Of a stretch of 33,790 nucleotides of DNA, positions 1-33,790 are shown piece after piece. The stretch spans positions 1-33,790 of the forward strand of contig NZ_NCII01000026.1 in the NCBI RefSeq assembly GCF_002256775.1, given 5' to 3'. Every line of letters begins with the position of its first letter. Position 1 is the stretch's first letter. The notes under the pieces were generated by a model. That model did no database searches. It worked only from the letters and a program-made list of their open reading frames with translations, and was not told the origin of the DNA. The stretch comes from Novosphingobium sp. 17-62-19. Lineage in GTDB: Bacteria > Pseudomonadota > Alphaproteobacteria > Sphingomonadales > Sphingomonadaceae. The position numbers and the translations under genes are program-made.

Positions 1-989
1 CCCCAGATGCGGCGGGCCATCGCCTGATGGCGGCGCACCTGTTCAAAGGCATCGCGCGTGTCATAGGCATGGCCTTCCCACTCGCTCACCATCGTGCCGA
101 TAAATCCGCCGTCCTTGAACAGCGGCAGGATCGTATCGTAATCGATCGCTTCTTCGACCAGATCCTCGCTCACGCCATAGAACTTGCCGTGGATGTGGAT
201 CGTGCGGTCCACCAGCGCGGCCCAGCTTTTAGGATCGTGGTTGGACAGGATGAAGAACGCCAGGCACGCGGCCTGGATGTGCAGCGGCGCGTGGCCGTGG
301 GCCATGCCCCATTCACGCAGACGCCCGGCCTTTTCATGGCTCATGCCGTCTTCAGTCCAGACCTCTTTCAGCTTATCAAGCAGGTCTTCCGAAGCACCCT
401 TGGCACGCGCGGCATCGAGCATCGATTCCGGGATACGGCTTGCCGTGCCACCAAAATCGGGAATCCAGCCCAGATAGGGCGTGTCCAGCTTGTCGTACAT
501 CTCGCCATAGGCCTGTACGGCAGGATGGCCCGCCCACATCGGCGCGTGAACTTCCACACCCATGCGGATGTCCAGTTCCTCGGCATATGGTGCGATTTCG
601 GGCAGGAGATGCACGGGCAGCGCGAACTGATACCGCACCAGCGAAAAGCCCATCTTCTTGGCCGAGCGCAGCTGGCGCTTGTGGTACTCCACCAGCGCGG
701 CATCTTCGATCGGCTGCTGGCCGGGCTTGAGGAAGCGATCCGAATTGATCGCGCAGGACACGGGGTTAAGGCCCGTGGCGGCAATCATTTCCTTGAACTT
801 TTCGGCATAGGCATCCGAAACGTCGGGGAATTCCTTGAACTGCTGAAAGCCGATGATTTCGATGTTCGGGCCAAGACCGCGCTTGGCCACTTCGGCCAGC
901 AGGGTATCAACCTCGAACTGGCGGGTCAGCCATTCGTTGGTGAAGGAATAGAGCGTGACGCCGGTCTGTGGACCTGTTGAAGCTGTCAT
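1..989 (-). CDS. C-glycoside deglycosidase alpha-like TIM-barrel protein (C-terminus cut by window edge)
   Basis: The minus strand is open from an ATG at 987-989 to the left edge, giving 329 residues with no stop. The start has a good Shine-Dalgarno (GAGAGGA) 8-10 nt upstream. The protein looks like the sugar phosphate isomerase/epimerase (xylose-isomerase-like) TIM-barrel superfamily. Candidate metal ligands are E146 (VEVH), D178 (IPDFGG), H265/H267 (IHIHG) and E303 (SEWEGH), in the order expected for that fold. It lies 15 bp downstream of a small DUF6379-like gene on the same strand. That pairing is the hallmark of C-glycoside deglycosidases (CarC/CarB, DfgA/DfgB type), in which the barrel subunit cleaves the C-C or C-O bond of a 3-keto-glycoside. 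Fold and pairing are read from the sequence; substrate and activity are inferred. It could instead be a generic sugar isomerase. Confidence 0.75.
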   Translation of the reverse strand, partial: MTASTGPQTGVTLYSFTNEWLTRQFEVDTLLAEVAKRGLGPNIEIIGFQQFKEFPDVSDAYAEKFKEMIAATGLNPVSCAINSDRFLKPGQQPIEDAALVEYHKRQLRSAKKMGFSLVRYQFALPVHLLPEIAPYAEELDIRMGVEVHAPMWAGHPAVQAYGEMYDKLDTPYLGWIPDFGGTASRIPESMLDAARAKGASEDLLDKLKEVWTEDGMSHEKAGRLREWGMAHGHAPLHIQAACLAFFILSNHDPKSWAALVDRTIHIHGKFYGVSEDLVEEAIDYDTILPLFKDGGFIGTMVSEWEGHAYDTRDAFEQVRRHQAMARRIW

Positions 990-1004
990 GTCTGTTGTCC
1001 TCTC

Positions 1005-1400
1005 TCAGGCCGCTACGCGCAGGGTTTCAGTCTGCGGATTGGTGCGCTTCATGCCGGGGATGTAGGGCGGGCTGACGAAGAGGTTCAGCGAGACTTCGCA
1101 ATTGCTGCCGACATTGGAGTGTACCGAAGGCAAGATCAGGAACGCAGAATCGCGGATGAACCAGAAGGTATCCACCTTTTCGCCATTCTCGCTCAGCGGC
1201 CAGCGCTGCCCGTCATATTCGATCAGTGCGTCTGAAAGGTCCACCGCATCGCCATTGATCGACAACGGCCCCACTTCGACCACCGAAAATGGCAGCGAGC
1301 GATACCACGGCAGGCGCATCGCCAATTTCAGCCCGCCATCGCTCAGGCAAAGCCCTTCTTCCCCGATAACCCGTTCGACTGGCAGCACAGCACTCTCCAC
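1005..1400 (-). CDS. C-glycoside deglycosidase beta-like small protein (DUF6379 type)
   Basis: This 131-residue protein starts with GTG at 1398-1400 (MESAVLPVERVIGEEGL). No strong ribosome binding site is visible. It has no signal peptide or membrane segment and is rich in beta-strand-like stretches (LPWYRSLPFSVVEV, TFWFIRDSAFLIL). Length and sequence style match the small beta subunit (DUF6379) of two-subunit C-glycoside deglycosidases, which packs on the barrel subunit and shapes the active site. The TIM-barrel gene follows after 15 bp, so the two are almost certainly co-transcribed and probably form a complex. The gene diverges from a GMC oxidoreductase, a family that can supply the 3-keto sugar these lyases need. 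The family name is from memory of the sequence pattern and was not searched. Confidence 0.65.
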   Translation of the reverse strand: MESAVLPVERVIGEEGLCLSDGGLKLAMRLPWYRSLPFSVVEVGPLSINGDAVDLSDALIEYDGQRWPLSENGEKVDTFWFIRDSAFLILPSVHSNVGSNCEVSLNLFVSPPYIPGMKRTNPQTETLRVAA

Positions 1401-1407
1401 GTTTTAA

Positions 1408-1425
1408 TTAGAATTTGACTTCTAA
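1408..1425. promoter_or_regulatory. Inverted repeat in divergent promoter, candidate operator
   Basis: The 110-bp gap between the deglycosidase-like operon and the GMC gene (1401-1510) holds a perfect inverted repeat, TTAGAA-N6-TTCTAA. The octamer TTCTAATC overlapping it (1421-1428) recurs at 1481-1488, 60 bp away, close to the GMC start. This is the only AT-rich part of the neighbourhood, so both promoters must lie here. A repressor or activator site is inferred; no regulator gene is adjacent in the visible part. Confidence 0.45.
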
Positions 1426-1510
1426 TCATGGGTTGACAGGCGGTCAAGGGCTGTGCAGACAAAAACGAACGATAGTTCTATTCTAATCTGCGAGCGGATG
1501 CCGGATCAAC

Positions 1511-3130
1511 ATGGCTGAATTCGATTACATCATCGTCGGCGCAGGCTCTGCCGGATGCGTGCTGGCCAACCGGCTCAGCGCCGATCCGCGCAATCGCGTG
1601 CTGCTGATCGAAGATGGGGGCGATAACCAGCACCCCTTCATCAAGATGGCGGGCGGCTTCGTGAAGATCATGGGGAACCCTGAATATTTCCGCGTCTATC
1701 CGCTCACCCAGCGCCCCGGAATGCGCGGCGGCATCCATACATATGGGCGCGGGCTTGGCGGATCATCAGCCATCAACGGCACGTGGTATCTCACCGGCGC
1801 GCCCAAGGATTTCGATGGCTGGGCGCAATCGGGCCTTGCCGGTTGGGGCTGGGACGAGATCGCCCGCTGCTATCGCAAGATCGAAAGCTATCGCGAACCC
1901 GGCGCGCATCCGGGGCGCGGGCGCGATGGCGAATTGCAGATCACTGCCTCCACCTATCAATCGCCCGTGTTCGATGCATTGGCGGCAGGGTTCGGCACGC
2001 AAGGTATGCCCTGGCTGGACGACATCACCACGCCCTCTACCCACGGCGTGGGCCGCAGCCAGTACACTGTAGACCGCAAGGGCGTGCGCGAAAGCGCCTA
2101 CAAGGCCTTCGTCATGCCGGTCCTGTCGCGCCCCAACCTGACCGTCGCCACCCACACTGCCGTCAGCCGCGTGCTGATCGAAAATGGCCGCGCTACCGGC
2201 GTGGTAACCGAAGCGCATGGGGAAGAACGCATCCACACCGCTGCGGGCGAAGTGATCGTCTCCGCAGGCGTCTACGGCTCACCGCAGTTGCTCCAGCTTT
2301 CTGGCGTCGGCCCCGGCGCGGCATTACAAGCGCTGGGCGTGCCCGTGGTGAAAGACCTGCCCATGGTGGGCCAGCAACTGGCCGATCACACGAAGTTCGG
2401 CGTGTCTTTTGACCTCACCAACCACCCCGGCACCAATCGCGAATTCTTCGGATGGCGGCTCTATCGCAACGCGATGCAATACTTCCTCACCGGCAAAGGC
2501 CACCTCGCCCGCGTCGGGATGCCGCTCACCGGGCTGATCGCCAGCGAAGGGGTGGATGCGGACTGGCCCGATCTGCAAGTCGCCGCCGCGCCTTTTGCCA
2601 TGCGCACGGTGAACGAGATGGCCGCCCGCCCCGGCAGCCCGCTCACCCCCAACCCCGGCCTCACCTTCTCAGGCTATCACTTGCGCCCGCGCAGCCGGGG
2701 CAGCGTCACGCTCACGTCACCCGACTTCCGCGCAGCCCCGCTGATCGATGCGGCGATCTGGGCCGATCCCTATGACCGCGCCAAATCGCTCGAACTGTTC
2801 CGCCTGTTCCGCGCCATTGCCGCGTCCGATCCACTAAAGCCCTTCATCGGCACCGAACGTATGCCCGGCCCCGCCGTGCAGGACGAGGACGCCATCGCCA
2901 CCGAACTTGCCAAGATGGTCGAAGGTGGACTCCATGGCACCGGCACCTGCTCGATGGGCACCAGCGAGAAAACCTCGGTCACCGACGCCCGCGCCCGCGT
3001 GCATGGCATTGGCGCCTTGCGCGTCGTCGATTGCTCGATCATGCCAACGCCGGTTTCCGGTAACACCAATGGCCCGGCCATGGCCGTGGCCGAACGCGCA
3101 GCCGAACTGATCCTGGCAGATGCGCGATAA
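1511..3130 (+). CDS. GMC-family FAD-dependent oxidoreductase
   Basis: This 539-residue protein is full length for the glucose-methanol-choline oxidoreductase family. It opens with the Rossmann FAD motif (IIVGAGSAGCVLANRLS, about residues 7-23), then GMC signature 1 (GRGLGGSSAING, from residue 79) and signature 2 (GSPQLLQLSGVGPG, about 256-269). The catalytic His is H475 (GLHGTGTCSMG), with the second polar active-site position in the SGNTNGP segment (N518/N520). There is no signal peptide, so it should be cytoplasmic. It diverges from the C-glycoside-deglycosidase-like pair. In known C-glycoside catabolism an FAD or NAD oxidoreductase first makes the 3-keto sugar. By sequence, however, this protein resembles choline/alcohol dehydrogenase-type GMC members, so its substrate is open. 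Only a weak ribosome binding site precedes the ATG. Confidence 0.92.
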   Translation: MAEFDYIIVGAGSAGCVLANRLSADPRNRVLLIEDGGDNQHPFIKMAGGFVKIMGNPEYFRVYPLTQRPGMRGGIHTYGRGLGGSSAINGTWYLTGAPKDFDGWAQSGLAGWGWDEIARCYRKIESYREPGAHPGRGRDGELQITASTYQSPVFDALAAGFGTQGMPWLDDITTPSTHGVGRSQYTVDRKGVRESAYKAFVMPVLSRPNLTVATHTAVSRVLIENGRATGVVTEAHGEERIHTAAGEVIVSAGVYGSPQLLQLSGVGPGAALQALGVPVVKDLPMVGQQLADHTKFGVSFDLTNHPGTNREFFGWRLYRNAMQYFLTGKGHLARVGMPLTGLIASEGVDADWPDLQVAAAPFAMRTVNEMAARPGSPLTPNPGLTFSGYHLRPRSRGSVTLTSPDFRAAPLIDAAIWADPYDRAKSLELFRLFRAIAASDPLKPFIGTERMPGPAVQDEDAIATELAKMVEGGLHGTGTCSMGTSEKTSVTDARARVHGIGALRVVDCSIMPTPVSGNTNGPAMAVAERAAELILADAR

Positions 3131-17967: not shown

Positions 17968-19548
17968 CTATCCATGCAGCTTCCGCATGGCACCGCGCGG
18001 ATCATCGGCCACGGTGATCGTGTTATCGAAGATCAACGTGGCGCGGCGCTTGGGTTCGTAGGCGGGCCAATGCGGGATGCGCGGGTTGTCAGGCGTGCCA
18101 TTGGCGGCAAAGGCGGCCCAGCTTGAGGCAATGGCGGCGGCAAGGCTGACCGCTTCGGGCGATGATCCGTTCAGCGCGCTGCGGGTGTTGTAGAGGCTTG
18201 GGGCAACGTCGATGCCATGGACGGCACCGAACCGGCCTCCCGCCGCAGGGCTGGGCGCTTTCCACAAGTAGGCCCAGACTGGGGCGCCCCCTTGCTGGGC
18301 TTTGCGCTCTGCCTGCGTGAAGGCACTTTTGCGGAACGTGCGATCGGTTTCCATGCGTGCGGCAAGGAGGAACGGCTTTTCATCGGGCGCTTCGGCGCGA
18401 TAGGCCGCCATGGCATCGGCGGCGCCATCACCGAAGAGCTTTTGAGCAAAGGTGGCAAGTCCTGCCTCGGTCATGCCGAAATCGGCCATGCGATAGGCGC
18501 GTTCGTCCAGCGCGGTGGAGACGATCATCGGCACATCGGCGGAGACGGCAGGCGCTTCCGGGTCCCACGGGTGGTGGGGCAGGGTGGTGCCATCGATCAC
18601 CGGGGCAAAGGCACCCGGCGCTTCGCCGCGCGCGCGGTCTGCCAGTTCGAGCTTGGCCTGAGTTTCCAGCAGTGTGGTCCACGGCACCTGCTGAAGCGTG
18701 CGGGCCTTTTCCGGTGCAATGTCCAGCGCGGCGAGAAGGCGGCGTGTGGCGGCAGAGGCCATTTCGGCGGGCATCATGCGCAAGGCCGATCCGCTCATCA
18801 CTCCGGCGCGGTGGAACAGGCCCTTGGCCGAGGGCATGGCCATCAGCACGCTGGTCTTGGCCCCGCCGCCCGATTGGCCATAGACCAGTACGCGCGAGGG
18901 ATCGCCGCCGAATTCGGCCACGTTCTGGCGCACCCAGGCCAGCGCGGCGACGATATCCTGCATTCCAGCGGTGCCCGATGTGGCAAAATCGGCCCCGGCG
19001 AATTCGGGCAGGTGGAGAAAGCCGAAGGCCCCGAGGCGGTGATTGATCGCGATGACCACGCTATCGGTAAAGCGGGCCATCTGTTCGCCGTCCATGCCAA
19101 CCGAATTGCCCGATCCGCTGTAGAACCCGCCGCCGTGCAGCACGACGATGACCGGCTTTTTTGCAGTGGCATCGATGCGCGGGGTCCACAGGTTAAGCGT
19201 GAGGTTGTTTTCACCCATGCCCGATGGATTGCGATCGACCATGATGAGATCGGCATAGACCGAGCGCCGGTCTCCCGGCACTTGCGGCGCGACATCGCCC
19301 CAGTGCAGGGCATCGCGAATGCCTGCCCAGTTTTGCAAAGGGCGCGGCGGCATGAAGCGGTTGGGGCCTGAGGTATCGGCCGCATAGTGGACGCCCCGGA
19401 AGATCGCCACGCCGCCCGATGAAAGCCCGCGCAGCTTGCCCTGTGCGGTTTCGACCACCGGGAACAGCGTGGCGCCCAGCGCCGGTTCCACCAAAGTGCC
19501 CACGCCCGTGGCCAGACCTGCTGCGATTGCCGTTCTGCGAGACATCAT
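17968..19548 (-). CDS. Type-B carboxylesterase, exported (esterase 1)
   Basis: This 526-residue protein is read from the ATG at 19546-19548, preceded by AGGAGAG 4 nt upstream. The N-terminus MMSRRTAIAAGLATGVGTL is a Tat-like signal (SRRTA), so it is exported. Type-B carboxylesterase features are the oxyanion block VVLHGGGFYSGSG, the nucleophile elbow YGQSGGG (S226), the acid in STALDE and the His in AVHGIDVAP. ENNLTLNLWTP stands for the usual EDCLYLNVW. It would hydrolyse carboxylic esters in the periplasm. It shares the island with two related esterases at 20991 and 29394; the three differ enough to suggest distinct substrates. It lies divergent from the aldolase gene. Confidence 0.93.
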   Translation of the reverse strand: MMSRRTAIAAGLATGVGTLVEPALGATLFPVVETAQGKLRGLSSGGVAIFRGVHYAADTSGPNRFMPPRPLQNWAGIRDALHWGDVAPQVPGDRRSVYADLIMVDRNPSGMGENNLTLNLWTPRIDATAKKPVIVVLHGGGFYSGSGNSVGMDGEQMARFTDSVVIAINHRLGAFGFLHLPEFAGADFATSGTAGMQDIVAALAWVRQNVAEFGGDPSRVLVYGQSGGGAKTSVLMAMPSAKGLFHRAGVMSGSALRMMPAEMASAATRRLLAALDIAPEKARTLQQVPWTTLLETQAKLELADRARGEAPGAFAPVIDGTTLPHHPWDPEAPAVSADVPMIVSTALDERAYRMADFGMTEAGLATFAQKLFGDGAADAMAAYRAEAPDEKPFLLAARMETDRTFRKSAFTQAERKAQQGGAPVWAYLWKAPSPAAGGRFGAVHGIDVAPSLYNTRSALNGSSPEAVSLAAAIASSWAAFAANGTPDNPRIPHWPAYEPKRRATLIFDNTITVADDPRGAMRKLHG

Positions 19549-19842
19549 GCTGCTCTCCTGTCGTTGCCGCCCCTTTCCGGGATCGGTCCGTGGCTCTGAC
19601 ACTAGAACCAATAGCGCATTCGTGTTAAGTCCTTTTTCCTTGAATGGGTATGGTTTCAAGGGTTCCGCTGCGGAATCCGCGCGAGAGGATGCAAATGTGA
19701 GACTTTCCGTGCGCGACGATGGCGCAGATCCGCGAAATATCCGATCTGTCCGGGACGAATCGGGTGCAGCAGCGGTCTATCGCGCGGCTCGACTGAAATG
19801 CGCGCCTTTGTGCTTGGCTCCACCGTTGAAAGAATTTTGAAA
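19549..19842. promoter_or_regulatory. Divergent intergenic region with two inverted repeats
   Basis: No gene is seen here between esterase 1 and the aldolase. Two operator-like palindromes lie in it: CCTTGAA-N10-TTCAAGG (19638-19661) and TTCCGC-T-GCGGAA (19663-19675), almost touching. They are placed to control both directions. The 18-bp motif found in the other divergent promoters of this arm is not seen here. Confidence 0.5.
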
Positions 19843-20973
19843 ATGGAGTCTGTTCTTGCTAACGGGCGAATCGTGCCGGACAGCTCCACGCCGCAACGCC
19901 AGTGGGCGCAGGCAAAGCTGACTGGACTGATGAACCTGATCCAGCCCACGTTCCGGCGCGACGGGGGAAGGTTGGACGAAGAGGCAATCCGCATCGATGT
20001 GCGTGCGGCTATTGCGCAGGGGTTTTCGGGAACGATGCCCATGCCCAACTGGACGATGCCGGGCAGTGCCGATTGGGACAGCTTTCACCGCATTGTGTGC
20101 GACGAGGCGCGGGGCAAAATTGCGGTGCACGGCATCGTGGCCGGGCGCGATCCTGAGGCAGATCGGGCCGTGCTTGGCGCGCTGGAGCGGCATGGGGTGG
20201 ATCTGGTGCTGCTGGCACCGACATTTCCGCGCGATGTGGATGCGCGCAGGCTTTATGATCTGATCGCGGCACGGGCACAGGCCACAGCGCTGCCGGCCAT
20301 GCTCTATGCCGCCACCGGGCGGCGTGCCTTTCCTGCGCTGGGGCCGGAAGGGCAGCCGCTGGACGTTTATGACCGGCTGGCGGATCTGCCCAATGTGGTG
20401 GCGGTCAAGGTTTCGCAGACGGTTTCTGCCACGGCGACCGAACTGGTCTGTGAGAGACTGGGTGACAGGCTTTCGATGGGGCCGGTCAATCTGGCGTTCC
20501 TGCCGCAACTGGCGCGGCGGTTCCGCATTGCGTGGAGCGGGCAGTGGAATGCCGAGGCGATCCAGACTCCGCAGGACAGGGCGGGCGTGCAATTGCTGGA
20601 CGCTTCGGCCTGCGGTGATCTGGTGCGGCTTGATGCGCTGGCGGAGCGGCTGCGGCCGGTTCTGGCACATTTCTTTGCGGTGCAGGCGCCGGTGCTTGCC
20701 CAAGGTGCGCATCCCTGGCCGCACAACCGCTATTACCAATGGCTGGGCGGGGGCAGCGGCGGGTTGCTTCCGGCCGATCCCCATGTGCCATCAGGCGTCA
20801 TTCCCGTGCTGGACGCGGCGGGGCGCGCTGCGATCCGGGCGGCCTTTGCCGCAGCGGGGCTGGAGCCGGTGGATGCCGAAGACGACGATGTGTTCATCGT
20901 TGGGCGGGCGGCCTGGGGGCGAGGGGAGCGGCCCGGTGCAGCCACAAAGACAAGCGGATATTCCCGCAATTGA
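19843..20973 (+). CDS. DHDPS/N-acetylneuraminate-lyase family aldolase-like protein
   Basis: The protein has 376 residues from ATG 19843 (MESVLANGRIVPDSS), or 391 from ATG 19798; no strong ribosome binding site decides. The fold is class I aldolase of the DapA family: Tyr in PAMLYAATGRR (Y155) and the Schiff-base Lys in NVVAVKVSQT (K189). The usual TTGE motif is replaced by GFSGTMPMPNWTM, and the chain is 70-80 residues longer than DapA, with a C-terminal extension. A role in lysine synthesis is therefore unlikely; cleavage of a pyruvate-containing catabolite, as in hydratase-aldolases of aromatic pathways, fits better. Esterase 2 starts 17 bp after its stop, so they form an operon. Confidence 0.8.
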   Translation: MESVLANGRIVPDSSTPQRQWAQAKLTGLMNLIQPTFRRDGGRLDEEAIRIDVRAAIAQGFSGTMPMPNWTMPGSADWDSFHRIVCDEARGKIAVHGIVAGRDPEADRAVLGALERHGVDLVLLAPTFPRDVDARRLYDLIAARAQATALPAMLYAATGRRAFPALGPEGQPLDVYDRLADLPNVVAVKVSQTVSATATELVCERLGDRLSMGPVNLAFLPQLARRFRIAWSGQWNAEAIQTPQDRAGVQLLDASACGDLVRLDALAERLRPVLAHFFAVQAPVLAQGAHPWPHNRYYQWLGGGSGGLLPADPHVPSGVIPVLDAAGRAAIRAAFAAAGLEPVDAEDDDVFIVGRAAWGRGERPGAATKTSGYSRN

Positions 20974-20990
20974 GAGAGGATGGATGCAGC

Positions 20991-22607
20991 ATGAAACGAG
21001 TTTGCATGAGAGCCTTGCCGCTGGTGGCCCTGATCCTGAGCGGCGCTTTGCCAGCCTTGGCCGCGTCTGCTGCCGAGGCACCGCGCCCGGTGCTCACGAC
21101 GGGTTTTGGCCCGGTGACCGGCAAGGTTGAAGGCAAATCCGGGCAAGTGCAGGTCTGGCGCGGGGTCCGCTATGCCGCCTCAACCGAAGGGCGGCGCTTT
21201 CAGCGGGCAATCGATCCGCAACCGTGGACCGCGCCTGTCGATGCCAGCGAATTTGGCAGCGATTGCCCGCAGCCGGTGCCCGGCGATGTTCCGGTCTTTG
21301 CATCGTGGGCCAATCCGCGCGGGATGAGCGAGGACTGCCTGTTCCTCAACGTGTGGACGCGGGGAAAGCCCGGCGATGGCAAGAAGCGGCCGATCATGGT
21401 CTGGCTGCATGGTGGCGGCTATGTCACCGGGTCGGGATCGAGCCATGGGTATGACGGTTCGCGGCTGGCCGAACGCGGCGATGTGGTGGTGGTGACGCTG
21501 AATCACCGGCTGAACGCCTTTGGCTATAGCCACCTTGCGCAGGCAAGCGACGATCCGCGCTATGCCGATGCGGGGAATCTGGGCAGCCTTGATATCGTGA
21601 AGGCGCTGCAATGGGTGCGCGATCATGCCGATGCGCTGGGCGGCGATGCCGGGAACGTGACGATTTTCGGGGAATCGGGCGGCGCGGCCAAGGTTTCCAC
21701 GCTGATGGCCATGCCCGATGCGCGCGGCCTGTTTCACCGCGCCATTGCACAATCGGGATCAATGTCTCTGGCGGGGTTCGATCCCCGGCTGGGTGCGGCG
21801 CTGGCGAAGGATCTGATGGCCACGGCGGGGGCGAACAGTGTGGCTGATCTGGCCGCGATGCCCATGGATGCGCTGGTCAAGGCCATGGTGCAATCGCGCA
21901 GCAGGGGCGGCTTTTACCGCCCTGTGGTGGATGGACGCGCGCTGACGCGCCATCCCTTTGCGCCTGATGCAACGCCGGTATCTGCCGATATTCCACTGCT
22001 GGTAGGCACCAACAACAACGAGATGCGGCTGCAAGGCGGGCTGGGCCAGCCCGGCAATTTTGCGCTGACATGGGAACAGTTGCCGCAAAAGCTGGAAGCC
22101 TTTGTGCCTGCAGCGGCGGTGGCAGACGTGATTGCGGGAATGCGCACCGCCCATCCCGAATACAACGCCAGCGACGTGTTCTTTCAGGTGGCCACGTTCC
22201 GCAACTATCGCGGCACCGCGCTGCGCCAGGCAGAGCGCAAGAGCGCGCAGGTCGCGCCGGTCTATATGTATCGGCTGGACTGGAAGACGCCGGTGGAAGG
22301 CGGCAGGCTGGGCACGCCGCACGCGCTCGACATTGCGTTCGTGTTCGACAATGTGGCGCGTTCCACCAGCTATACCGGTCCGCAGACTGCGCAGACGCAG
22401 CGCATGGCCGACCTGATGGCAGATGCGTGGATCGCCTTTGCGCGCACCGGCAACCCGGCCACGCCTGCGCTGCCCAAATGGCCCGCCTATGCCACTACGC
22501 AGCGCGCCACGATGATCTTCGACCTGAAGCCTGCGGTAGTGGCCGATCCCGATGCTGCAGAGCGCGAATTGTTGCAGCGGCTTCTGCCGGAAGGCCCGGC
22601 GCGATAG
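20991..22607 (+). CDS. Type-B carboxylesterase, exported (esterase 2)
   Basis: This 538-residue protein is read from ATG 20991, with GAGAGGA 10 nt upstream. It has a Sec signal (MKRVCMRALPLVALILSG, cleavage near ALAASA). Catalytic features are VWLHGGGYVTGSG, the Ser elbow FGESGGAAK (S229), the acid in GTNNNE and the His in TPHALDIAFVF. EDCLFLNVWT is the family signature. It should act in the periplasm. It is the second gene of an operon with the aldolase-like gene, suggesting that an ester product feeds a lyase step, though the two act in different compartments. It is convergent with the VOC gene. Confidence 0.93.
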   Translation: MKRVCMRALPLVALILSGALPALAASAAEAPRPVLTTGFGPVTGKVEGKSGQVQVWRGVRYAASTEGRRFQRAIDPQPWTAPVDASEFGSDCPQPVPGDVPVFASWANPRGMSEDCLFLNVWTRGKPGDGKKRPIMVWLHGGGYVTGSGSSHGYDGSRLAERGDVVVVTLNHRLNAFGYSHLAQASDDPRYADAGNLGSLDIVKALQWVRDHADALGGDAGNVTIFGESGGAAKVSTLMAMPDARGLFHRAIAQSGSMSLAGFDPRLGAALAKDLMATAGANSVADLAAMPMDALVKAMVQSRSRGGFYRPVVDGRALTRHPFAPDATPVSADIPLLVGTNNNEMRLQGGLGQPGNFALTWEQLPQKLEAFVPAAAVADVIAGMRTAHPEYNASDVFFQVATFRNYRGTALRQAERKSAQVAPVYMYRLDWKTPVEGGRLGTPHALDIAFVFDNVARSTSYTGPQTAQTQRMADLMADAWIAFARTGNPATPALPKWPAYATTQRATMIFDLKPAVVADPDAAERELLQRLLPEGPAR

Positions 22608-29393: not shown

Positions 29394-30821
29394 ATGAGTC
29401 GGTATGCTGGTATCACGCTGGGCGTGATTTCGTTTGCTATGGCGGCTGGGGCGGGCCTTGCGCAGATGCCTCCGACGATTGATCCGGCTGTCGTGCAGAT
29501 CGCCAACGGGACGCTTTCCGGTTCGCGTGAAAACGGCGTACTTGTCTTTCGAGGAGTGCCCTATGCTGCGGCTCCCGTGGGTGAACTGCGCTGGCGCGCA
29601 CCGCAGCCGGTGGCAAACTGGACCGGCGTACGCGCTGCATCCGCGCATGAAGCCCCCTGCGTGCAGCCCGTGGATATTGACAGCACGACGGCAAACTTTG
29701 GCGGTGTGAACGGCGCGCAATCCGAAGACTGCCTCTATCTTACCATTCACGCACCACAGGCGGGCAAGGGCGCGCCGGTCATGGTCTGGTTCCACGGCGG
29801 GGCGTTCTTTCTGGGTGCGGGTCACCTTGGTTCATACGATGGCACGGCCAATGCCCGGCAGGGTGTTGTCACCGTCAGCGTGAACTACCGCCTTGGGGCG
29901 ATGGCAAATTTCGTGCACCCCGCGCTTGAAGCCGAGGCGAAAGCTGCAGGAGCTGCGCGGGCCAGCGAGCCGCGTGGGAACTATGCGCTGCAGGATAGCG
30001 TGGCGGCGCTGCAATGGATTCGCGCCAATATTGCGGCGTTCGGCGGTGATGCATCGAATGTCACCATTGCCGGACAATCGGCGGGCGGCGGGATTGTTAC
30101 CAACCTGCTGTCGCTTCCTTCAGCCAAGGGCTTGTTTGCCAAGGCGATTGTCCAGTCCGGCAGCCTGCTTATGCCCGATCGTGATCCGGCCAGCGCCAAG
30201 GACCTGGCGGTGAAGGCGATGGCGACAATTGGTGTGAGCGAAACGGCTAAGGCAAAGGATCTGCGGGCGATTTCGGCCCAGACCTTTGCCGCATCGACCG
30301 CGCTGCGCAGCGGTTTTTTCTTCACCAGCGATGAGGGCTACAAACCGCGCTCGACCATCGCCGCGCTGAAGGACGGCACCGAATTCGACGTGCCGCTGCT
30401 GGTGGGATCGAACAAGGGAGAGCGCGGCTTTGCAGCAGCGCGGACTTTTGCCAGCCTTGCCGGAGACAGCGGCGCGCCGGCCTTCCTCTATCGTTTCGAT
30501 CATGTGCCCGCGTTCCGGGCATCGGAATGGAAAAGCGGGCCGATCCATTCGGCTGAACTGATGTTCACCTTTGATTCGATTGATCTTTCAAGCTGGGGCG
30601 GGGCCAAGGCCGATGCGGCGGATCGCGCGCTGGCCAAACAGATGAACGGCTGCTGGGTGGCCTTTGCACGCATGGCCAAGGGCGCGCGCACCTTTGATTG
30701 CGCCAACGGCTTTGCGTGGAAGCCATTCGGGAAAGAGGGCGAAACGGCGGTTTTCGGCAGCACAGGCCCAGCCATGAAAAGCGGCCTCGCCATGCCTGAC
30801 GGGCCTGCTGCAGCGGAGTGA
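29394..30821 (+). CDS. Type-B carboxylesterase, exported (esterase 3)
   Basis: This 475-residue protein has GAAGAGGA 9 nt before the ATG. It has a Sec signal (MSRYAGITLGVISFAMAAGA, cleavage near GLA-Q). Family blocks are complete: FRGVPYAAAPVGELRW, EDCLYLTI, VWFHGGAFFLGAG, the Ser elbow AGQSAGG (S229), the acid in GSNKGE and the His in IHSAELMFTF. It is about 50-60 residues shorter than esterases 1 and 2, mainly between the Ser and His blocks. It lies 74 bp upstream of a TonB-dependent receptor on the same strand, so substrate import and hydrolysis appear linked. Periplasmic hydrolysis of an imported ester is the simplest reading. Confidence 0.93.
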   Translation: MSRYAGITLGVISFAMAAGAGLAQMPPTIDPAVVQIANGTLSGSRENGVLVFRGVPYAAAPVGELRWRAPQPVANWTGVRAASAHEAPCVQPVDIDSTTANFGGVNGAQSEDCLYLTIHAPQAGKGAPVMVWFHGGAFFLGAGHLGSYDGTANARQGVVTVSVNYRLGAMANFVHPALEAEAKAAGAARASEPRGNYALQDSVAALQWIRANIAAFGGDASNVTIAGQSAGGGIVTNLLSLPSAKGLFAKAIVQSGSLLMPDRDPASAKDLAVKAMATIGVSETAKAKDLRAISAQTFAASTALRSGFFFTSDEGYKPRSTIAALKDGTEFDVPLLVGSNKGERGFAAARTFASLAGDSGAPAFLYRFDHVPAFRASEWKSGPIHSAELMFTFDSIDLSSWGGAKADAADRALAKQMNGCWVAFARMAKGARTFDCANGFAWKPFGKEGETAVFGSTGPAMKSGLAMPDGPAAAE

Positions 30822-30895: not shown

Positions 30896-33790
30896 ATGGC
30901 TAGAAAGACCCGTTACATGTTGGGGACAATGCTTGCCCTGCCATTGGCAGTGATGGCCAGTGGTGCGGCAGTTGCGCAGGAAGCGCAGGCCCAAACCAGC
31001 GAGGATGTGCAGGAGCTGGAACGCCAGATCATCGTAACCGGCAGCTACATTCGCGGCACGTCGGAGAACGATTCTCTCCCGGTCGAGGTCTATACCACCG
31101 CAGAACTTTCGCAGCGCGGCATCGACAGCCCGCTCGAATTCATCCGCACGCTGCCTTCGGTGGGTATCACGCTGGGGGAATCCAACCAGTATGCGGCAGG
31201 CGGTAGCCAGGGCGTGGGTTCGATCAACTTGCGCGGACTGGGGCGCGAACGCACGCTCGTTCTGATGAACGGCCGCCGCTTCTTTCCTGAACCGGGCGAT
31301 GGCGCTTCGGACACCAACCTCATTCCGATGTTCGCATTGCAGCGCGTGGAAGTGCTGAAAGACGGTGCATCGACGACCTATGGTTCCGATGCGATTGCAG
31401 GCGTGGCCAACTTCGTCACACGCAAGAATTTTACCGGCGTCGAAGTTTCGGGCAACTACCAGTTCGTACGGGGATCGAAGGGCAACTATCAGGCCAGCAT
31501 TCTGGCGGGCCATGATTTCGGCACGGCGAACCTGATGGTCGGGTTCGGCTATCAGCACCGTTCGGAACTGAGCACGCGCGACCGCGATTTCACCGATGTG
31601 CCTTATGCGGTCAATCCCTCGGGCTGGTCGTTCCTCAACGATGTGGGCAGCTACATTCCCAAGCTGGGCTCGATCACACAGGGCGTTGCAGGGCGTTCAC
31701 TGGGGCTGGGGGTTGATGGGCAACTGTCCAATGCCTGCGGTGCCATTGGCGGACTGGCTGGCACATTCCCGTCTGGCGCGTCCAACTTCCCGGTCTGCCG
31801 CTATTCGTTCATTCCTTTCGTCAACCTGATCGAGGAAGAGCATCGCTATCAGGGCTATGCGCAACTGGACGTCGATCTTTCGGACAGTCTGCGTTTCGTG
31901 GCAGATGTGCTCTATTCGCACACCGATGTGCCGACGCTCGGCTATTCGCCCAGCTATCCGCCGACGTCAGGCCCGCGCGGGCCGGGATCATCGCAGGCGT
32001 TCTTCGTCCCGCGCTCCAACCCCGGCTACAACACATTCCTTGCGCAGACTTTTCCTGCCGGAAACCCGGCCTATCTTTCGGGATATTCCAGCATCCTGTT
32101 CTTCCGTCCGTTCGGGCTGACGGGCAATCCGCTCGATCCCGAAGGATCGGGGCAGGGCGCTGCCTACAACAACGCCTGGCGGGTGACGGCAGGCTTCGAA
32201 AAGGAATTCAGCCCCAATTTCCGGGCCGAACTTTACGGCACGTTCCTGCGCAGCCATCGCACCGCCTATTCATTCGACATTCTGGGCGGCCGCTTGCAGA
32301 ACGCGCTCAACGGCCTTGGCGGACCGAACTGCACCGGTACTACGCCGGGAGCAAACGGGTGCCAGTACTTCAACCCCTTCGTCAATTCGCGGCCGGGGAA
32401 TCCCGCGCTGGGCCTGGACAATCCGCTCTATGTTCCGGGCAACGAAAACAGCGCGGCGCTGGTCGAATGGATGCGCGCCAAGAACGGTACCAAGGCGCAT
32501 GAAGAACAACGCATCGTCGATCTGGTGTTCAGCGGCTCGTTCAACATCGGCATACCGTTCGATTATGCGTTTGGCGCGCAGTATCGCAGCACCAACTTCG
32601 TCAGCCGTGGCATCAACAGCTTCAACGATCCGGCAGTAACGCCTTGCGCAATCGAAGGGGACCGCACCTGTCTGGATGATCCCAATGATCTGAATTTCCC
32701 CACAGGGCCGTTCATTTTCCTTGGCCAGTATCCCACGGCGAACCAAAGTCAGAGCGTCTATGCCATCTTTGCCGAAGCCAAGATCATCCCGTTCACCGGG
32801 TTCGAACTGAACGGCGCGGTCCGCTATGAGGACTATGGCGGCTCGGTGGGATCGACCTTCAATCCCAAGCTGAATGCGCGCTGGCAAATGACAGACTGGC
32901 TCGCGCTGCGGGGATCGGTGGGCGATACCTTCCGTGGGCCTTTGCCGGGCGATCTTTCACCCAATGGCGCCAGTGCCGTTGCGGGGATCAACGTGCTGGG
33001 CAACAACTTCAAGGCCATCGATTCGGGCGGCAATCCCAATCTGAAGCCGGAAACGGCGCTGACCTACAACATCGGTGCAATCATCGATGCGGGGGGCTTC
33101 TCCTTCACAGCCGATTACTGGACCTACAAGTTCAAGGGACGGTTCACCGATTTGCCCGTGCAGGCAATTGCGGCCTTGGTAGCGCCGGGTGGCACCAACG
33201 GGCAGCAGGCGGTCAACTGTGCCAGCCCCTTTGTTCAGTTCGTGGTGTTTGAAGGCGGCGTCTGCACCGCCAGCACGATCGGCCTCGATATTTCGCGCAT
33301 CCGCCGCCAGACGGTGAACGGCCCGGATTCGACCGTAAGCGGCCTCGATTTCGGGCTGAACTACCAGGGCGAAGTGGGTGGCGTGAAAGTGGACTTTGGC
33401 GTGAACGCCACGCACGTTCTGAAATACACATTCTCCGACTTCGTTTATGAGGGCCTGACCTTCAGCCCCGGTTACGATGCAGCGGGCTTGTCGAATTATG
33501 ACCGCGCGCCCGGCACGGTTTCAAAATGGCGCGGCAATGCCTTTGCCTCGTTCGGGGTGGGGCCGGTTACCGCCACCTACAACCTGCTCTACATCGATGG
33601 CGTGACCGACAACCGCTGCCAGCCCAACGTTCCGTGCGCGACAACGCCGGAGTTCGGCGGCACCGATTTCGGGCGCGAGATCGGCAGCTATCCGGTTCTG
33701 GCCGGACAACTTTCGGACTGGATCGCGGGAGCCGGTCCTCATGGCCTGCGCATTGGCCTGTCGGTCGCCATCCCCACCGGTTACATCGGC
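30896..33790 (+). CDS. TonB-dependent outer-membrane receptor (C-terminus cut by window edge)
   Basis: The frame is open from ATG 30896 to the right edge (965 codons, no stop). GGGAGAGAGGGA lies just upstream of the ATG. A Sec signal (cleavage near AVAQ, residue 28) is followed by a TonB-box-like segment (QIIVTGSYIRG), then the plug domain (PLEFIRTLPSVG, INLRGLGRERTLVLMNGRRF, IPMFALQRVEVLKDGASTTYGSDAIAGVANFVTRK). After that come beta-barrel strands (AYNNAWRVTAGFEKEF, FELNGAVRYEDYGGSVGSTFNPKLNARW, NLKPETALTYNIG). The end probably lies only a short distance beyond the window. It should import a compound through the outer membrane using TonB energy. The gene before it is an esterase, so an ester or plant-derived or xenobiotic compound is likely. 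The plug is of the large sphingomonad catabolic-receptor type, not a classic siderophore receptor by context. Confidence 0.94.
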   Translation, partial: MARKTRYMLGTMLALPLAVMASGAAVAQEAQAQTSEDVQELERQIIVTGSYIRGTSENDSLPVEVYTTAELSQRGIDSPLEFIRTLPSVGITLGESNQYAAGGSQGVGSINLRGLGRERTLVLMNGRRFFPEPGDGASDTNLIPMFALQRVEVLKDGASTTYGSDAIAGVANFVTRKNFTGVEVSGNYQFVRGSKGNYQASILAGHDFGTANLMVGFGYQHRSELSTRDRDFTDVPYAVNPSGWSFLNDVGSYIPKLGSITQGVAGRSLGLGVDGQLSNACGAIGGLAGTFPSGASNFPVCRYSFIPFVNLIEEEHRYQGYAQLDVDLSDSLRFVADVLYSHTDVPTLGYSPSYPPTSGPRGPGSSQAFFVPRSNPGYNTFLAQTFPAGNPAYLSGYSSILFFRPFGLTGNPLDPEGSGQGAAYNNAWRVTAGFEKEFSPNFRAELYGTFLRSHRTAYSFDILGGRLQNALNGLGGPNCTGTTPGANGCQYFNPFVNSRPGNPALGLDNPLYVPGNENSAALVEWMRAKNGTKAHEEQRIVDLVFSGSFNIGIPFDYAFGAQYRSTNFVSRGINSFNDPAVTPCAIEGDRTCLDDPNDLNFPTGPFIFLGQYPTANQSQSVYAIFAEAKIIPFTGFELNGAVRYEDYGGSVGSTFNPKLNARWQMTDWLALRGSVGDTFRGPLPGDLSPNGASAVAGINVLGNNFKAIDSGGNPNLKPETALTYNIGAIIDAGGFSFTADYWTYKFKGRFTDLPVQAIAALVAPGGTNGQQAVNCASPFVQFVVFEGGVCTASTIGLDISRIRRQTVNGPDSTVSGLDFGLNYQGEVGGVKVDFGVNATHVLKYTFSDFVYEGLTFSPGYDAAGLSNYDRAPGTVSKWRGNAFASFGVGPVTATYNLLYIDGVTDNRCQPNVPCATTPEFGGTDFGREIGSYPVLAGQLSDWIAGAGPHGLRIGLSVAIPTGYIG

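What the first reader, a model, noticed from the sequence alone, without database searches (positions are those of the whole stretch)
1..3130. Candidate C-glycoside (or 3-keto-glycoside) cleavage locus in a sphingomonad-like replicon
A TIM-barrel protein with xylose-isomerase-like metal ligands and a 131-aa DUF6379-like partner lie 15 bp apart and diverge from a GMC FAD oxidoreductase. Characterised C-glycoside catabolism uses exactly these three roles: an FAD oxidase makes the 3-keto sugar, then an alpha/beta lyase breaks the anomeric C-C bond. Here the oxidoreductase looks like the choline-dehydrogenase branch rather than known C-glycoside oxidases, so the pathway could act on a new substrate.
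Basis: partly seen in the sequence, partly recalled or inferred. Interest (0 to 1): 0.7.

Follow-up and report, generated by a model that had tools for sequence, protein, structure and literature searches.

The report
Novosphingobium C-glycoside-type lyase and oxidase locus
A Novosphingobium bacterium carries a two-part enzyme of a known type that splits sugars off plant-like aromatic glycosides, kept together with an unusual flavin enzyme that probably primes the sugar, under one shared DNA switch.

Summary
Observation confirmed. The 131-aa protein is a Pfam CGDB (C-glycoside deglycosidase beta) member (32.7 bits, cut-off 27.6). The barrel is CGD-alpha-like; all seven metal/catalytic residues of AgCGD2 are conserved in 41 of 41 aligned relatives. 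The divergent GMC is BetA-branch, not pyranose-oxidase/C-glycoside-3-oxidase.

New here: (1) the window starts at a contig end; contig C1 overlaps it by 76 bp and adds two sugar isomerases, a second CGD pair, a GPH symporter and a TonB receptor. (2) In 195 Novosphingobium genomes 34 have the alpha and 33 the GMC, the 33 all within the 34. (3) A palindrome, ATTAGAA-N6-TTCTAAT, lies between GMC and beta in 37 of 37 loci and marks further CGD, transporter, Gfo/Idh and TetR genes. (4) That regulon also holds a fructose-dehydrogenase-type GMC, a rival 3-oxidase; in genome G157, where none was found, a BetA-like GMC fills its slot, though beside a lyase with an altered metal site.

Verdict: CGD-type 3-keto-glycoside beta-eliminase with an unusual, possibly sugar-oxidising GMC partner. 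Activity and substrate are untested.

The parts
3..989 (-). CGD-type alpha subunit (xylose-isomerase-like TIM barrel), 329 aa in the window; the last codons lie on contig C1
1005..1400 (-). CGD-type beta subunit (DUF6379 / Pfam CGDB), 131 aa as called; the start is more likely the GTG at 1388
   Evidence: orthologue starts
1407..1426 (.). Palindromic putative operator ATTAGAATTTGACTTCTAAT (ATTAGAA-N6-TTCTAAT) between the two divergent genes
1511..3130 (+). BetA-branch GMC flavin oxidoreductase, 539 aa, conserved H475/N518 pair; apparently dedicated partner of the alpha-beta pair

Best explanation
The beta-alpha pair is a divalent-metal-dependent 3-keto-glycoside beta-eliminase of the C-glycoside-deglycosidase (CGD) family. 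The alpha barrel binds the metal through Glu146, Asp178, His267, Lys269 and Glu303. The sugar 3-keto group sits on the metal, His148 removes the C2 proton, and the aglycone leaves from C1, giving 2-hydroxy-3-keto-glycal. Sugar-isomerase-like TIM barrels encoded next door probably hydrate this, and a Gfo/Idh enzyme of the same putative regulon probably reduces 3-keto-glucose to glucose. The divergent GMC most likely performs the flavin-dependent oxidation, probably at sugar C3, that arms the substrate of this particular lyase. It is a BetA-branch enzyme in the role that CarA/PsG3Ox/PurA (pyranose-oxidase branch) play in soil actinobacteria and DgpA plays in gut bacteria. A TetR repressor acting at ATTAGAA-N6-TTCTAAT probably turns the set on together with uptake genes. 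Shown by sequence: families, active site, conserved palindrome, co-occurrence. Inferred: every reaction, the regulator-operator pairing, and the substrate (an aromatic glycoside, C- or O-linked).
For: CGDB match over cut-off; CGD catalytic residues in 41/41 alpha1-group rows. GMC beside beta-alpha in 36 of 39 loci; the three exceptions have a contig edge or a truncated alpha. In 195 genus genomes alpha (>=60% identity) is in 34 and GMC (>=62%) in 33, all 33 within the 34; within 2.3 kb in 32; hypergeometric p 1e-36. In a 199-genome family sample alpha is in 4 and GMC at 71% or more in the same 4. Palindrome in 37/37 intergenic regions (26 exact, 11 with one mismatch). In G352, where the GMC sits on another contig, both genes keep a copy (L055 0 mismatches, L054 2 mismatches). 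In the tree's sister clade 5 of 11 GMC rows have CGD genes within 10 kb, against 0 of 7 plasmid GMC loci outside both clades (9 kb flanks). In L044 (G157) such a GMC overlaps the Gfo/Idh gene and fills the slot that a fructose-DH-type GMC fills in L045, and G157 has no fructose-DH-type match at E<=1e-20.
Against: No characterised BetA-branch GMC is known to me to oxidise sugar C3; the best PDB hits are a chloramphenicol-inactivating oxidoreductase, choline dehydrogenase and alcohol oxidases. A fructose-dehydrogenase-type GMC is in each alpha1 genome checked (34/34 in the genus sample; 10/10 distinct ones outside it), and its operon carries the palindrome in the window genome and its nearest orthologues, so it could supply the 3-keto sugar. 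The slot argument is weakened: the alpha beside the L044-type GMCs has Gln in place of metal ligand His269 (6 of 28 alpha2-group rows, L044, L052 and L060 among them), a position whose Ala mutant nearly lost activity in known CGDs (PMC8563793), and the L044 Gfo/Idh is itself a possible oxidase. The join of the window GMC clade with its sister clade is weakly supported (85/75). Beta1 is a divergent CGDB member, and AgCGD2 aglycone contact N248 is Phe in 38 of 38 clade rows, so the substrate may not be a flavonoid C-glucoside. Docking not reproduced.
Confidence: 0.47

Rival explanations
1. The fructose-dehydrogenase/GlycDH-type complex (Gluconate_2-dh3 with a Tat-like start, plus GMC; contig C120) makes the 3-keto glycoside in the periplasm. 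The 3-keto glycoside is imported and cleaved by beta-alpha. The window GMC works on another alcohol, for example on the released or still attached aglycone.
For: This GMC type is present in all 34 alpha1 genomes of the genus sample (88 of 195 overall; hypergeometric p 2e-14) and in 10 of 10 distinct alpha1 genomes outside it, at 74-81%. Palindrome (2 mismatches) 48 bp before the Gluconate_2-dh3 start, whose product begins with a Tat-like RRDFLG; seen at <=3 mismatches in 9 of 9 orthologues of 86% or more. In L045/L046 this GMC type sits in one cluster with a 41%-identical alpha-beta pair that has the full metal site. In 7 alpha1 loci both GMC types lie within the fetched stretch. BetA-branch GMCs are typically alcohol oxidoreductases (recalled).
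Against: It is not exclusive: 54 genus genomes have this GMC type without an alpha1 of 60% or more, whereas the window GMC was found only with alpha1. Palindrome seen in only 3 of 10 orthologues at 71-79%, and no control was run at 3 mismatches. G157 has a CGD-like operon with a BetA-like GMC and no match to this type.
Confidence: 0.34
2. The beta-alpha pair is an O-glycoside (not C-glycoside) 3-keto eliminase, or acts on a non-flavonoid aglycone, with CGD chemistry otherwise unchanged.
For: PuCGE of this family also cleaves 3-keto O-glucosides (PMC10628242, abstract, introduction and results parts 1-2 read). The alpha1 clade has Phe where the AgCGD2 aglycone contact N248 lies. Genes near or under the palindrome in relatives include GH43, DUF1080, ThuA, carboxylesterases and Rieske/FAD monooxygenases.
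Against: The beta subunit, present in the characterised C-glycoside cleavers and absent in AtOGE (PMC10628242), was seen in each locus with a full-length alpha1 that I examined.
Confidence: 0.4
3. The GMC is an unrelated alcohol dehydrogenase that merely lies next to the pair.
For: BetA-branch GMCs are abundant; the genome search gave three further genes, none with a CGD in the roughly 1.5 kb of flank held.
Against: Exclusive co-occurrence in 33 genomes, shared palindrome in 37 of 37 loci, and both genes kept with the palindrome after separation in G352.
Confidence: 0.05

Closest known systems
C-glycoside deglycosidases CarBC/MiCGD, AgCGD2 (7dnm), PuCGD/DgpBC (7bvr), Deinococcus aerius CGD (8qvc), PurBC
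   Same: Adjacent alpha and beta genes, alpha TIM barrel with the same metal ligands and catalytic His/Glu, CGDB beta subunit; model alpha TM 0.85-0.89 (8qvc, 8umc, 7dnm, 7bvr, 9m3a) and beta TM 0.68-0.73 (7dnm, 7dnn), target-normalised
   Different: Separate well-supported clade (99/98); 27-31% identity to four characterised alphas; aglycone contact N248 is Phe; beta only 32.7 bits to CGDB
C-glycoside-3-oxidases CarA / PsG3Ox / PurA (pyranose-oxidase branch of GMC)
   Same: GMC superfamily, gene beside beta-alpha (GMCs of about 520 aa lie so in Arthrobacter NicSoilB11 and Deinococcus aetherius), probable role
   Different: The window GMC is BetA-branch (NF002550 407 bits against pyranose oxidase 24.7) and is far from the Deinococcus CGD-linked GMC in the tree
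A. tumefaciens GlycDH-AtOGE-AtHYD-Gfo pathway (PMC10628242)
   Same: Oxidation, elimination, hydration, reduction; the genome has a fructose-DH-type GMC, TIM barrels and a Gfo/Idh near one palindrome
   Different: CGD-type heteromeric eliminases instead of AtOGE, plus an extra BetA-type GMC
BetA-type GMC alcohol dehydrogenases; chloramphenicol-inactivating oxidoreductase (8b7s)
   Same: Nearest characterised sequences of the GMC; H475/N518 pair kept
   Different: Clade-specific residues such as Y78, T91, W92, Y127, W352, mostly different in ten outside GMCs; tied to CGD loci

Membership tests
C-glycoside deglycosidase (CGD) alpha-beta lyase | Beta subunit matches Pfam CGDB over its curated cut-off | tested here: met
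   32.7 bits against 27.6; also found by whole-genome search
C-glycoside deglycosidase (CGD) alpha-beta lyase | Alpha metal ligands E147, D179, H269, K271, E305 (AgCGD2 numbering) | tested here: met
   E146, D178, H267, K269, E303; invariant in 41 of 41 alpha1-group rows
C-glycoside deglycosidase (CGD) alpha-beta lyase | Catalytic His149 and Glu307 | tested here: met
   H148 and E305, 41 of 41
C-glycoside deglycosidase (CGD) alpha-beta lyase | Alpha and beta genes side by side | tested here: met
   15 bp apart; one open frame of 465 aa in Novosphingobium sp. MW5, L018
C-glycoside deglycosidase (CGD) alpha-beta lyase | Subunits dock as in CGD crystals | tested here: inconclusive
   Single-chain read-through model pLDDT 81.8, pTM 0.67; each domain matches CGD subunits but the whole matches the fused CGD 8qrz only at TMq 0.52, rmsd 16
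C-glycoside deglycosidase (CGD) alpha-beta lyase | Cleavage of 3-keto C-glycosides | not testable with these tools
   Needs enzyme assay
Pyranose oxidase / C-glycoside-3-oxidase (CarA, PsG3Ox) | GMC matches the pyranose-oxidase branch | tested here: not met
   TIGR02462 24.7 bits, cut-off 544.9; far from the Deinococcus CGD-linked GMC in the tree
Choline dehydrogenase BetA | Passes the TIGR01810 or NF002550 cut-off | tested here: not met
   329 against 732 and 407 against 605 bits
Fructose-dehydrogenase/GlycDH-type complex (C120, same putative regulon) | GMC large subunit with a Gluconate_2-dh3 small subunit upstream | tested here: met
   PF13618 in L096:1569-2195, next to the GMC

The most novel reading that the evidence does not exclude
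A BetA-branch GMC clade of sphingomonads is a new, independently evolved class of glycoside C3-oxidoreductase. It serves CGD-type lyases (alpha1-beta1 here, and a metal-site variant in G157/RAC03) in place of pyranose-oxidase-branch or Gfo/Idh enzymes. In Novosphingobium it belongs to an undescribed TetR regulon with operator ATTAGAA-N6-TTCTAAT that unites uptake, 3-oxidation, C-C/C-O beta-elimination and aglycone hydroxylation.
Probability: 0.39. Interest if true: 0.72.

Novelty: new variant of a known kind. Interest (0 to 1): 0.57.

Why it matters
Characterised CGD systems pair the lyase with an FAD oxidase (CarA, PurA) in soil bacteria or NAD-dependent DgpA in gut bacteria (PMC12724307, discussion read); the soil oxidases belong to the pyranose-oxidase family (PMC10628242, for CarA and PsG3Ox). 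If the BetA-branch GMC is the oxidant here, oxidation for glycoside beta-elimination evolved once more, from alcohol dehydrogenases, and the clade signature would let it be recognised in genomes. The palindrome gives a genetic handle: the inducer of the regulon would point to the natural substrate. Novosphingobium aromaticivorans, an established aromatics-degrading laboratory strain, carries the orthologues SARO_RS18750-18765, so the pathway can be tested directly.

Tried and rejected
I used genome searches and stretches instead. 2) Chance adjacency of GMC and the pair: rejected by the genus profile and the palindrome. 3) 'GMC is a CarA-type oxidase': rejected by NCBIfam scores and the tree. 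4) 'GMC is certainly the 3-oxidase': not accepted, because the fructose-DH-type GMC co-occurs and carries the palindrome. 5) First fold alignment A1: MAFFT put beta rows on the alpha part; replaced by A2 with in-frame read-through rows. 6) Docking by the read-through model: inconclusive. 7) Substrate from neighbours: suggestive only (aryl O-demethylase, FAD hydroxylase, GH43, esterases in relatives). 8) Paper searches. No title or abstract start listed concerned this locus or a CGD regulator (lists were capped at 12-25 rows; most hits were off topic); DUF6379 gave 0 papers. The library lacks most subscription papers, so this is weak.

Limits: genus counts use identity thresholds that I set after seeing a gap (alpha >=60%, GMC >=62%); rows below them (alpha 41%: G280 and a second G390 copy; GMC 49-51%) were set aside and studied apart. 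Reversed-pattern controls were 4 against 7 sites in the own genome and 9 against 58 in eight relatives, so single two-mismatch sites may be chance; the 3-mismatch scan had no control. One GMC first taken as an outside control (L069, 45%) falls in the sister clade in the tree, so the contrast is given as 5 of 11 against 0 of 7. Of those 7, L074 has GH3 and sulfatase genes and L073 a weak TIM-barrel hit nearby. Some listed sites were not followed up (for example G328 C1 and C2:68534/1462789, G203 C1:3133148) and one fetched site (G285 C7, L139) lay by no gene of the set.
Full report
WHAT IS THERE. The window is contig C42 of a draft genome (3.8 Mb, 149 contigs) that is taken as Novosphingobium: a genome listed as same genus (G203) has the alpha at the very coordinates of pNL2 of N. 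aromaticivorans (inference). On the minus strand lie beta (1005-1400) and, 15 bp on, alpha (3-989, running into the contig edge); GMC (1511-3130) diverges. Beta passes the Pfam cut-off for CGDB, the C-glycoside deglycosidase beta subunit. Alpha hits the alpha subunits of C-glycoside deglycosidases in the PDB. GMC scores highest with choline-dehydrogenase models without reaching their cut-offs and hardly touches the pyranose-oxidase model.

LEFT OF THE WINDOW. The first 76 bases of contig C1 (L007) equal the reverse complement of the window's first 76 bases, and gene order on pNL2 agrees. C1 continues with a TIM-barrel isomerase (hydroxypyruvate-isomerase-like, under that model's cut-off), TspO, a second and stronger CGD pair (beta2 117.5 bits to CGDB; alpha2 363 bits to Deinococcus aerius CGD 8qvc), a GPH sugar symporter, a further TIM barrel, an isochorismatase-family hydrolase, an ORF that looks like a chemotaxis receptor (read by eye, not scanned) and a TonB receptor. 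The window thus shows the edge of a glycoside-use locus.

ACTIVE SITE. Mapping on AgCGD2 (residue roles from PMC8563793, passages and sections 8, 11, 13 read) gives E146, D178, H267, K269, E303 for the metal and H148, E305 for catalysis, invariant in 41 of 41 alpha1-group rows (38 clade rows plus L045, L046, L057); Tyr17 is kept, while the aglycone contact Asn248 is Phe in the 38 and Gly in the other 3. Alpha1 of sphingomonads forms a clade (38 rows, 99/98), nearest to AgCGD2-type and to a 41% homologue in other Novosphingobium. Several long branches make deeper placement unsure.

LINKAGE OF THE GMC. 39 loci with alpha1 (35 from the species collection, plus four plasmids) were examined: 36 have the GMC divergent from beta-alpha. 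The other three are L016 (a 5.1-kb contig with the pair at its edge) and L040 and L042 (truncated alpha). In a genus sample of 195 genomes, alpha at 60% or more is in 34 and the GMC at 62% or more in 33, all within the 34; the miss is G310, 78% complete, whose 5.1-kb contig matches L016. In 32 of 33 the distance between match starts is 1.5-2.3 kb; in G352 the GMC is on another contig. In a family sample of 199 genomes alpha is in 4, and the GMC at 71% or more in the same 4, with two further GMCs at 50% (G119, G157). Named loci and G genomes overlap, so these samples are not independent.

SISTER GMCs. GMCs at 45-51% identity form a neighbouring clade of 11 rows in the tree (96/96; its join with the window clade is weak, 85/75). 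Five have CGD genes within 10 kb (L043, L044, L050, L052 and the Sphingobium RAC03 plasmid, L060). Of the six others, L047 and L049 lie by a TIM barrel and a TonB receptor, L051 and L053 by a GPH transporter, L048 and L069 by none of these as far as scanned. Seven plasmid GMC loci outside both clades (39-42%) have no CGD within 9 kb; the six annotated ones sit mostly with P450, acyl-CoA, amine, transport or aromatic genes, though L074 also has GH3 and sulfatase genes. The two clades share residues such as Y78, T91, W92, Y127 and W352, mostly different in ten outside rows (ten such positions, picked after the fact).

PALINDROME. The GMC-beta gap holds ATTAGAA-N6-TTCTAAT in 37 of 37 loci, 26 exact and 11 with one mismatch, with arms nearly fixed and spacer free; 0.03 expected in the window at up to two mismatches. 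Where the GMC has moved (G352), the motif is before GMC (exact) and before beta (two mismatches). In the window's genome seven sites have two mismatches or fewer (reversed-pattern control: four): GMC/beta; upstream of alpha2-beta2; upstream of TIM3/GPH; between a TetR gene and a Gfo/Idh-TIM operon on C86; before a TonB receptor on C86; before a Gluconate_2-dh3/fructose-DH-type GMC operon on C120; and between an MFS and an FAD monooxygenase on C130. Eight relatives give 58 sites against 9 controls. In G203 (N. aromaticivorans) and G352 the MFS is followed by a further CGD-like pair (with a hydrolase ORF between its two genes in G352); in G214 and G232 a site lies at the start of a GH43 gene. 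The C86 TetR is 55-71% identical to a TetR within about 4 kb of alpha1 in 15 of the 39 loci, hence the likely regulator (inference). In the window the motif lies between the beta start and a TTGACC-like box read on the minus strand (inference of a -35 box).

WHICH ENZYME OXIDISES THE SUGAR? For the GMC: exclusive partnership, shared palindrome, the position that annotated GMC oxidoreductases hold beside CGD pairs in Arthrobacter and Deinococcus plasmids, and slot exchange. In L045 and L046 GPH, beta, alpha and a fructose-DH-type GMC follow each other (a Gluconate_2-dh3-like ORF between alpha and GMC in L046), with Gfo/Idh and TIM next in L045. In L044 the order is TonB receptor, alpha, beta, BetA-like GMC, overlapping Gfo/Idh, TIM, and that genome (G157) has no fructose-DH-type match at E<=1e-20. 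Against: the alpha of L044, L060 and four more rows has Gln where the metal ligand His269 should be, as have the further pairs in L135 and L136, so these may not be ordinary CGDs. The fructose-DH-type GMC is in all 34 alpha1 genomes (88 of 195 overall), in 10 of 10 distinct alpha1 genomes tested outside the genus sample (G001 and the L023 genome gave the same coordinates and count once), and has the palindrome upstream in 9 of 9 near orthologues but only 3 of 10 farther ones, at up to three mismatches and without a control. I give the GMC 0.47 for the arming oxidation and 0.34 to the rival.

STRUCTURE. Beta and alpha are in frame, so the pair was folded as one chain with the TGA read as Gly. 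Mean pLDDT 81.8, pTM 0.67. Alpha matches CGD alphas (target TM 0.85-0.89 for 8qvc, 8umc, 7dnm, 7bvr, 9m3a), beta matches 7dnm_B (0.73), but the natural fused CGD 8qrz is matched only at TMq 0.52, rmsd 16, so the relative placement was not recovered. A related strain (L018, Novosphingobium sp. MW5) has both subunits in one open frame of 465 aa, which supports a complex but could be a sequencing error.

LITERATURE SEEN. PMC8563793 (abstract, passages, sections 8, 11, 13), PMC10628242 (abstract, introduction, results parts 1-2), PMC12724307 (abstract, discussion), PMC10646112 and PMC10807413 (passages); the rest as search listings only. The reaction sequence and the roles of CarA, PurA, DgpA, GlycDH, AtOGE are from these; that BetA-branch GMCs are alcohol oxidoreductases, and Tat export of such dehydrogenase complexes, are recalled.

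VERDICT. A CGD-family lyase locus by sequence, of a new clade, with an unusual GMC partner and a regulon that I found in no paper listed. Not categorically new chemistry; the open point is the GMC's substrate.

Noticed in passing
L018:9599-10996: Novosphingobium sp. MW5 carries beta1 and alpha1 in one open frame of 465 aa, a natural (or sequencing-error) fusion.
   Followed up: partly
L044, L052, L060, L059, L063, L030 (alpha rows); L135, L136: A CGD-like alpha subfamily of sphingomonads has Gln in place of the metal ligand His269 (HIQAKFY instead of HxHxKFY-type), next to BetA-like GMC or MFS genes; metal binding or reaction may differ.
   Followed up: partly
window 1473-1486: A second motif-like half (AGTTCTATTCTAAT) near the GMC start; similar words recur in about a dozen relatives.
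   Followed up: no
L086 (genome contig C60): Gluconate_2-dh3, fructose-DH-type GMC and ThuA on a 5.3-kb contig: a second 3-keto-sugar-type cluster without the palindrome.
   Followed up: partly
window 17968-19659, 20739-22607, 29394-30821: Three carboxylesterase-family genes, 33-44% identical to one in the pNL2 CGD locus; a TonB receptor starting at 30896 runs off the right edge.
   Followed up: no
L135, L136: A further CGD-like alpha-beta pair (44% to alpha2) follows an MFS gene under the same palindrome in N. aromaticivorans (G203) and G352; a VanA-like Rieske gene lies near in L135.
   Followed up: partly
L141:2872-4566, L142:2557-4248: Palindrome-like sites lie at the start of GH43 genes in two relatives.
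   Followed up: partly
L040:8948-9988: A Nitrospira MAG contig holds beta1 fused behind an unrelated (RibF-like, by eye) stretch and a truncated alpha1; looks like an assembly chimera.
   Followed up: no
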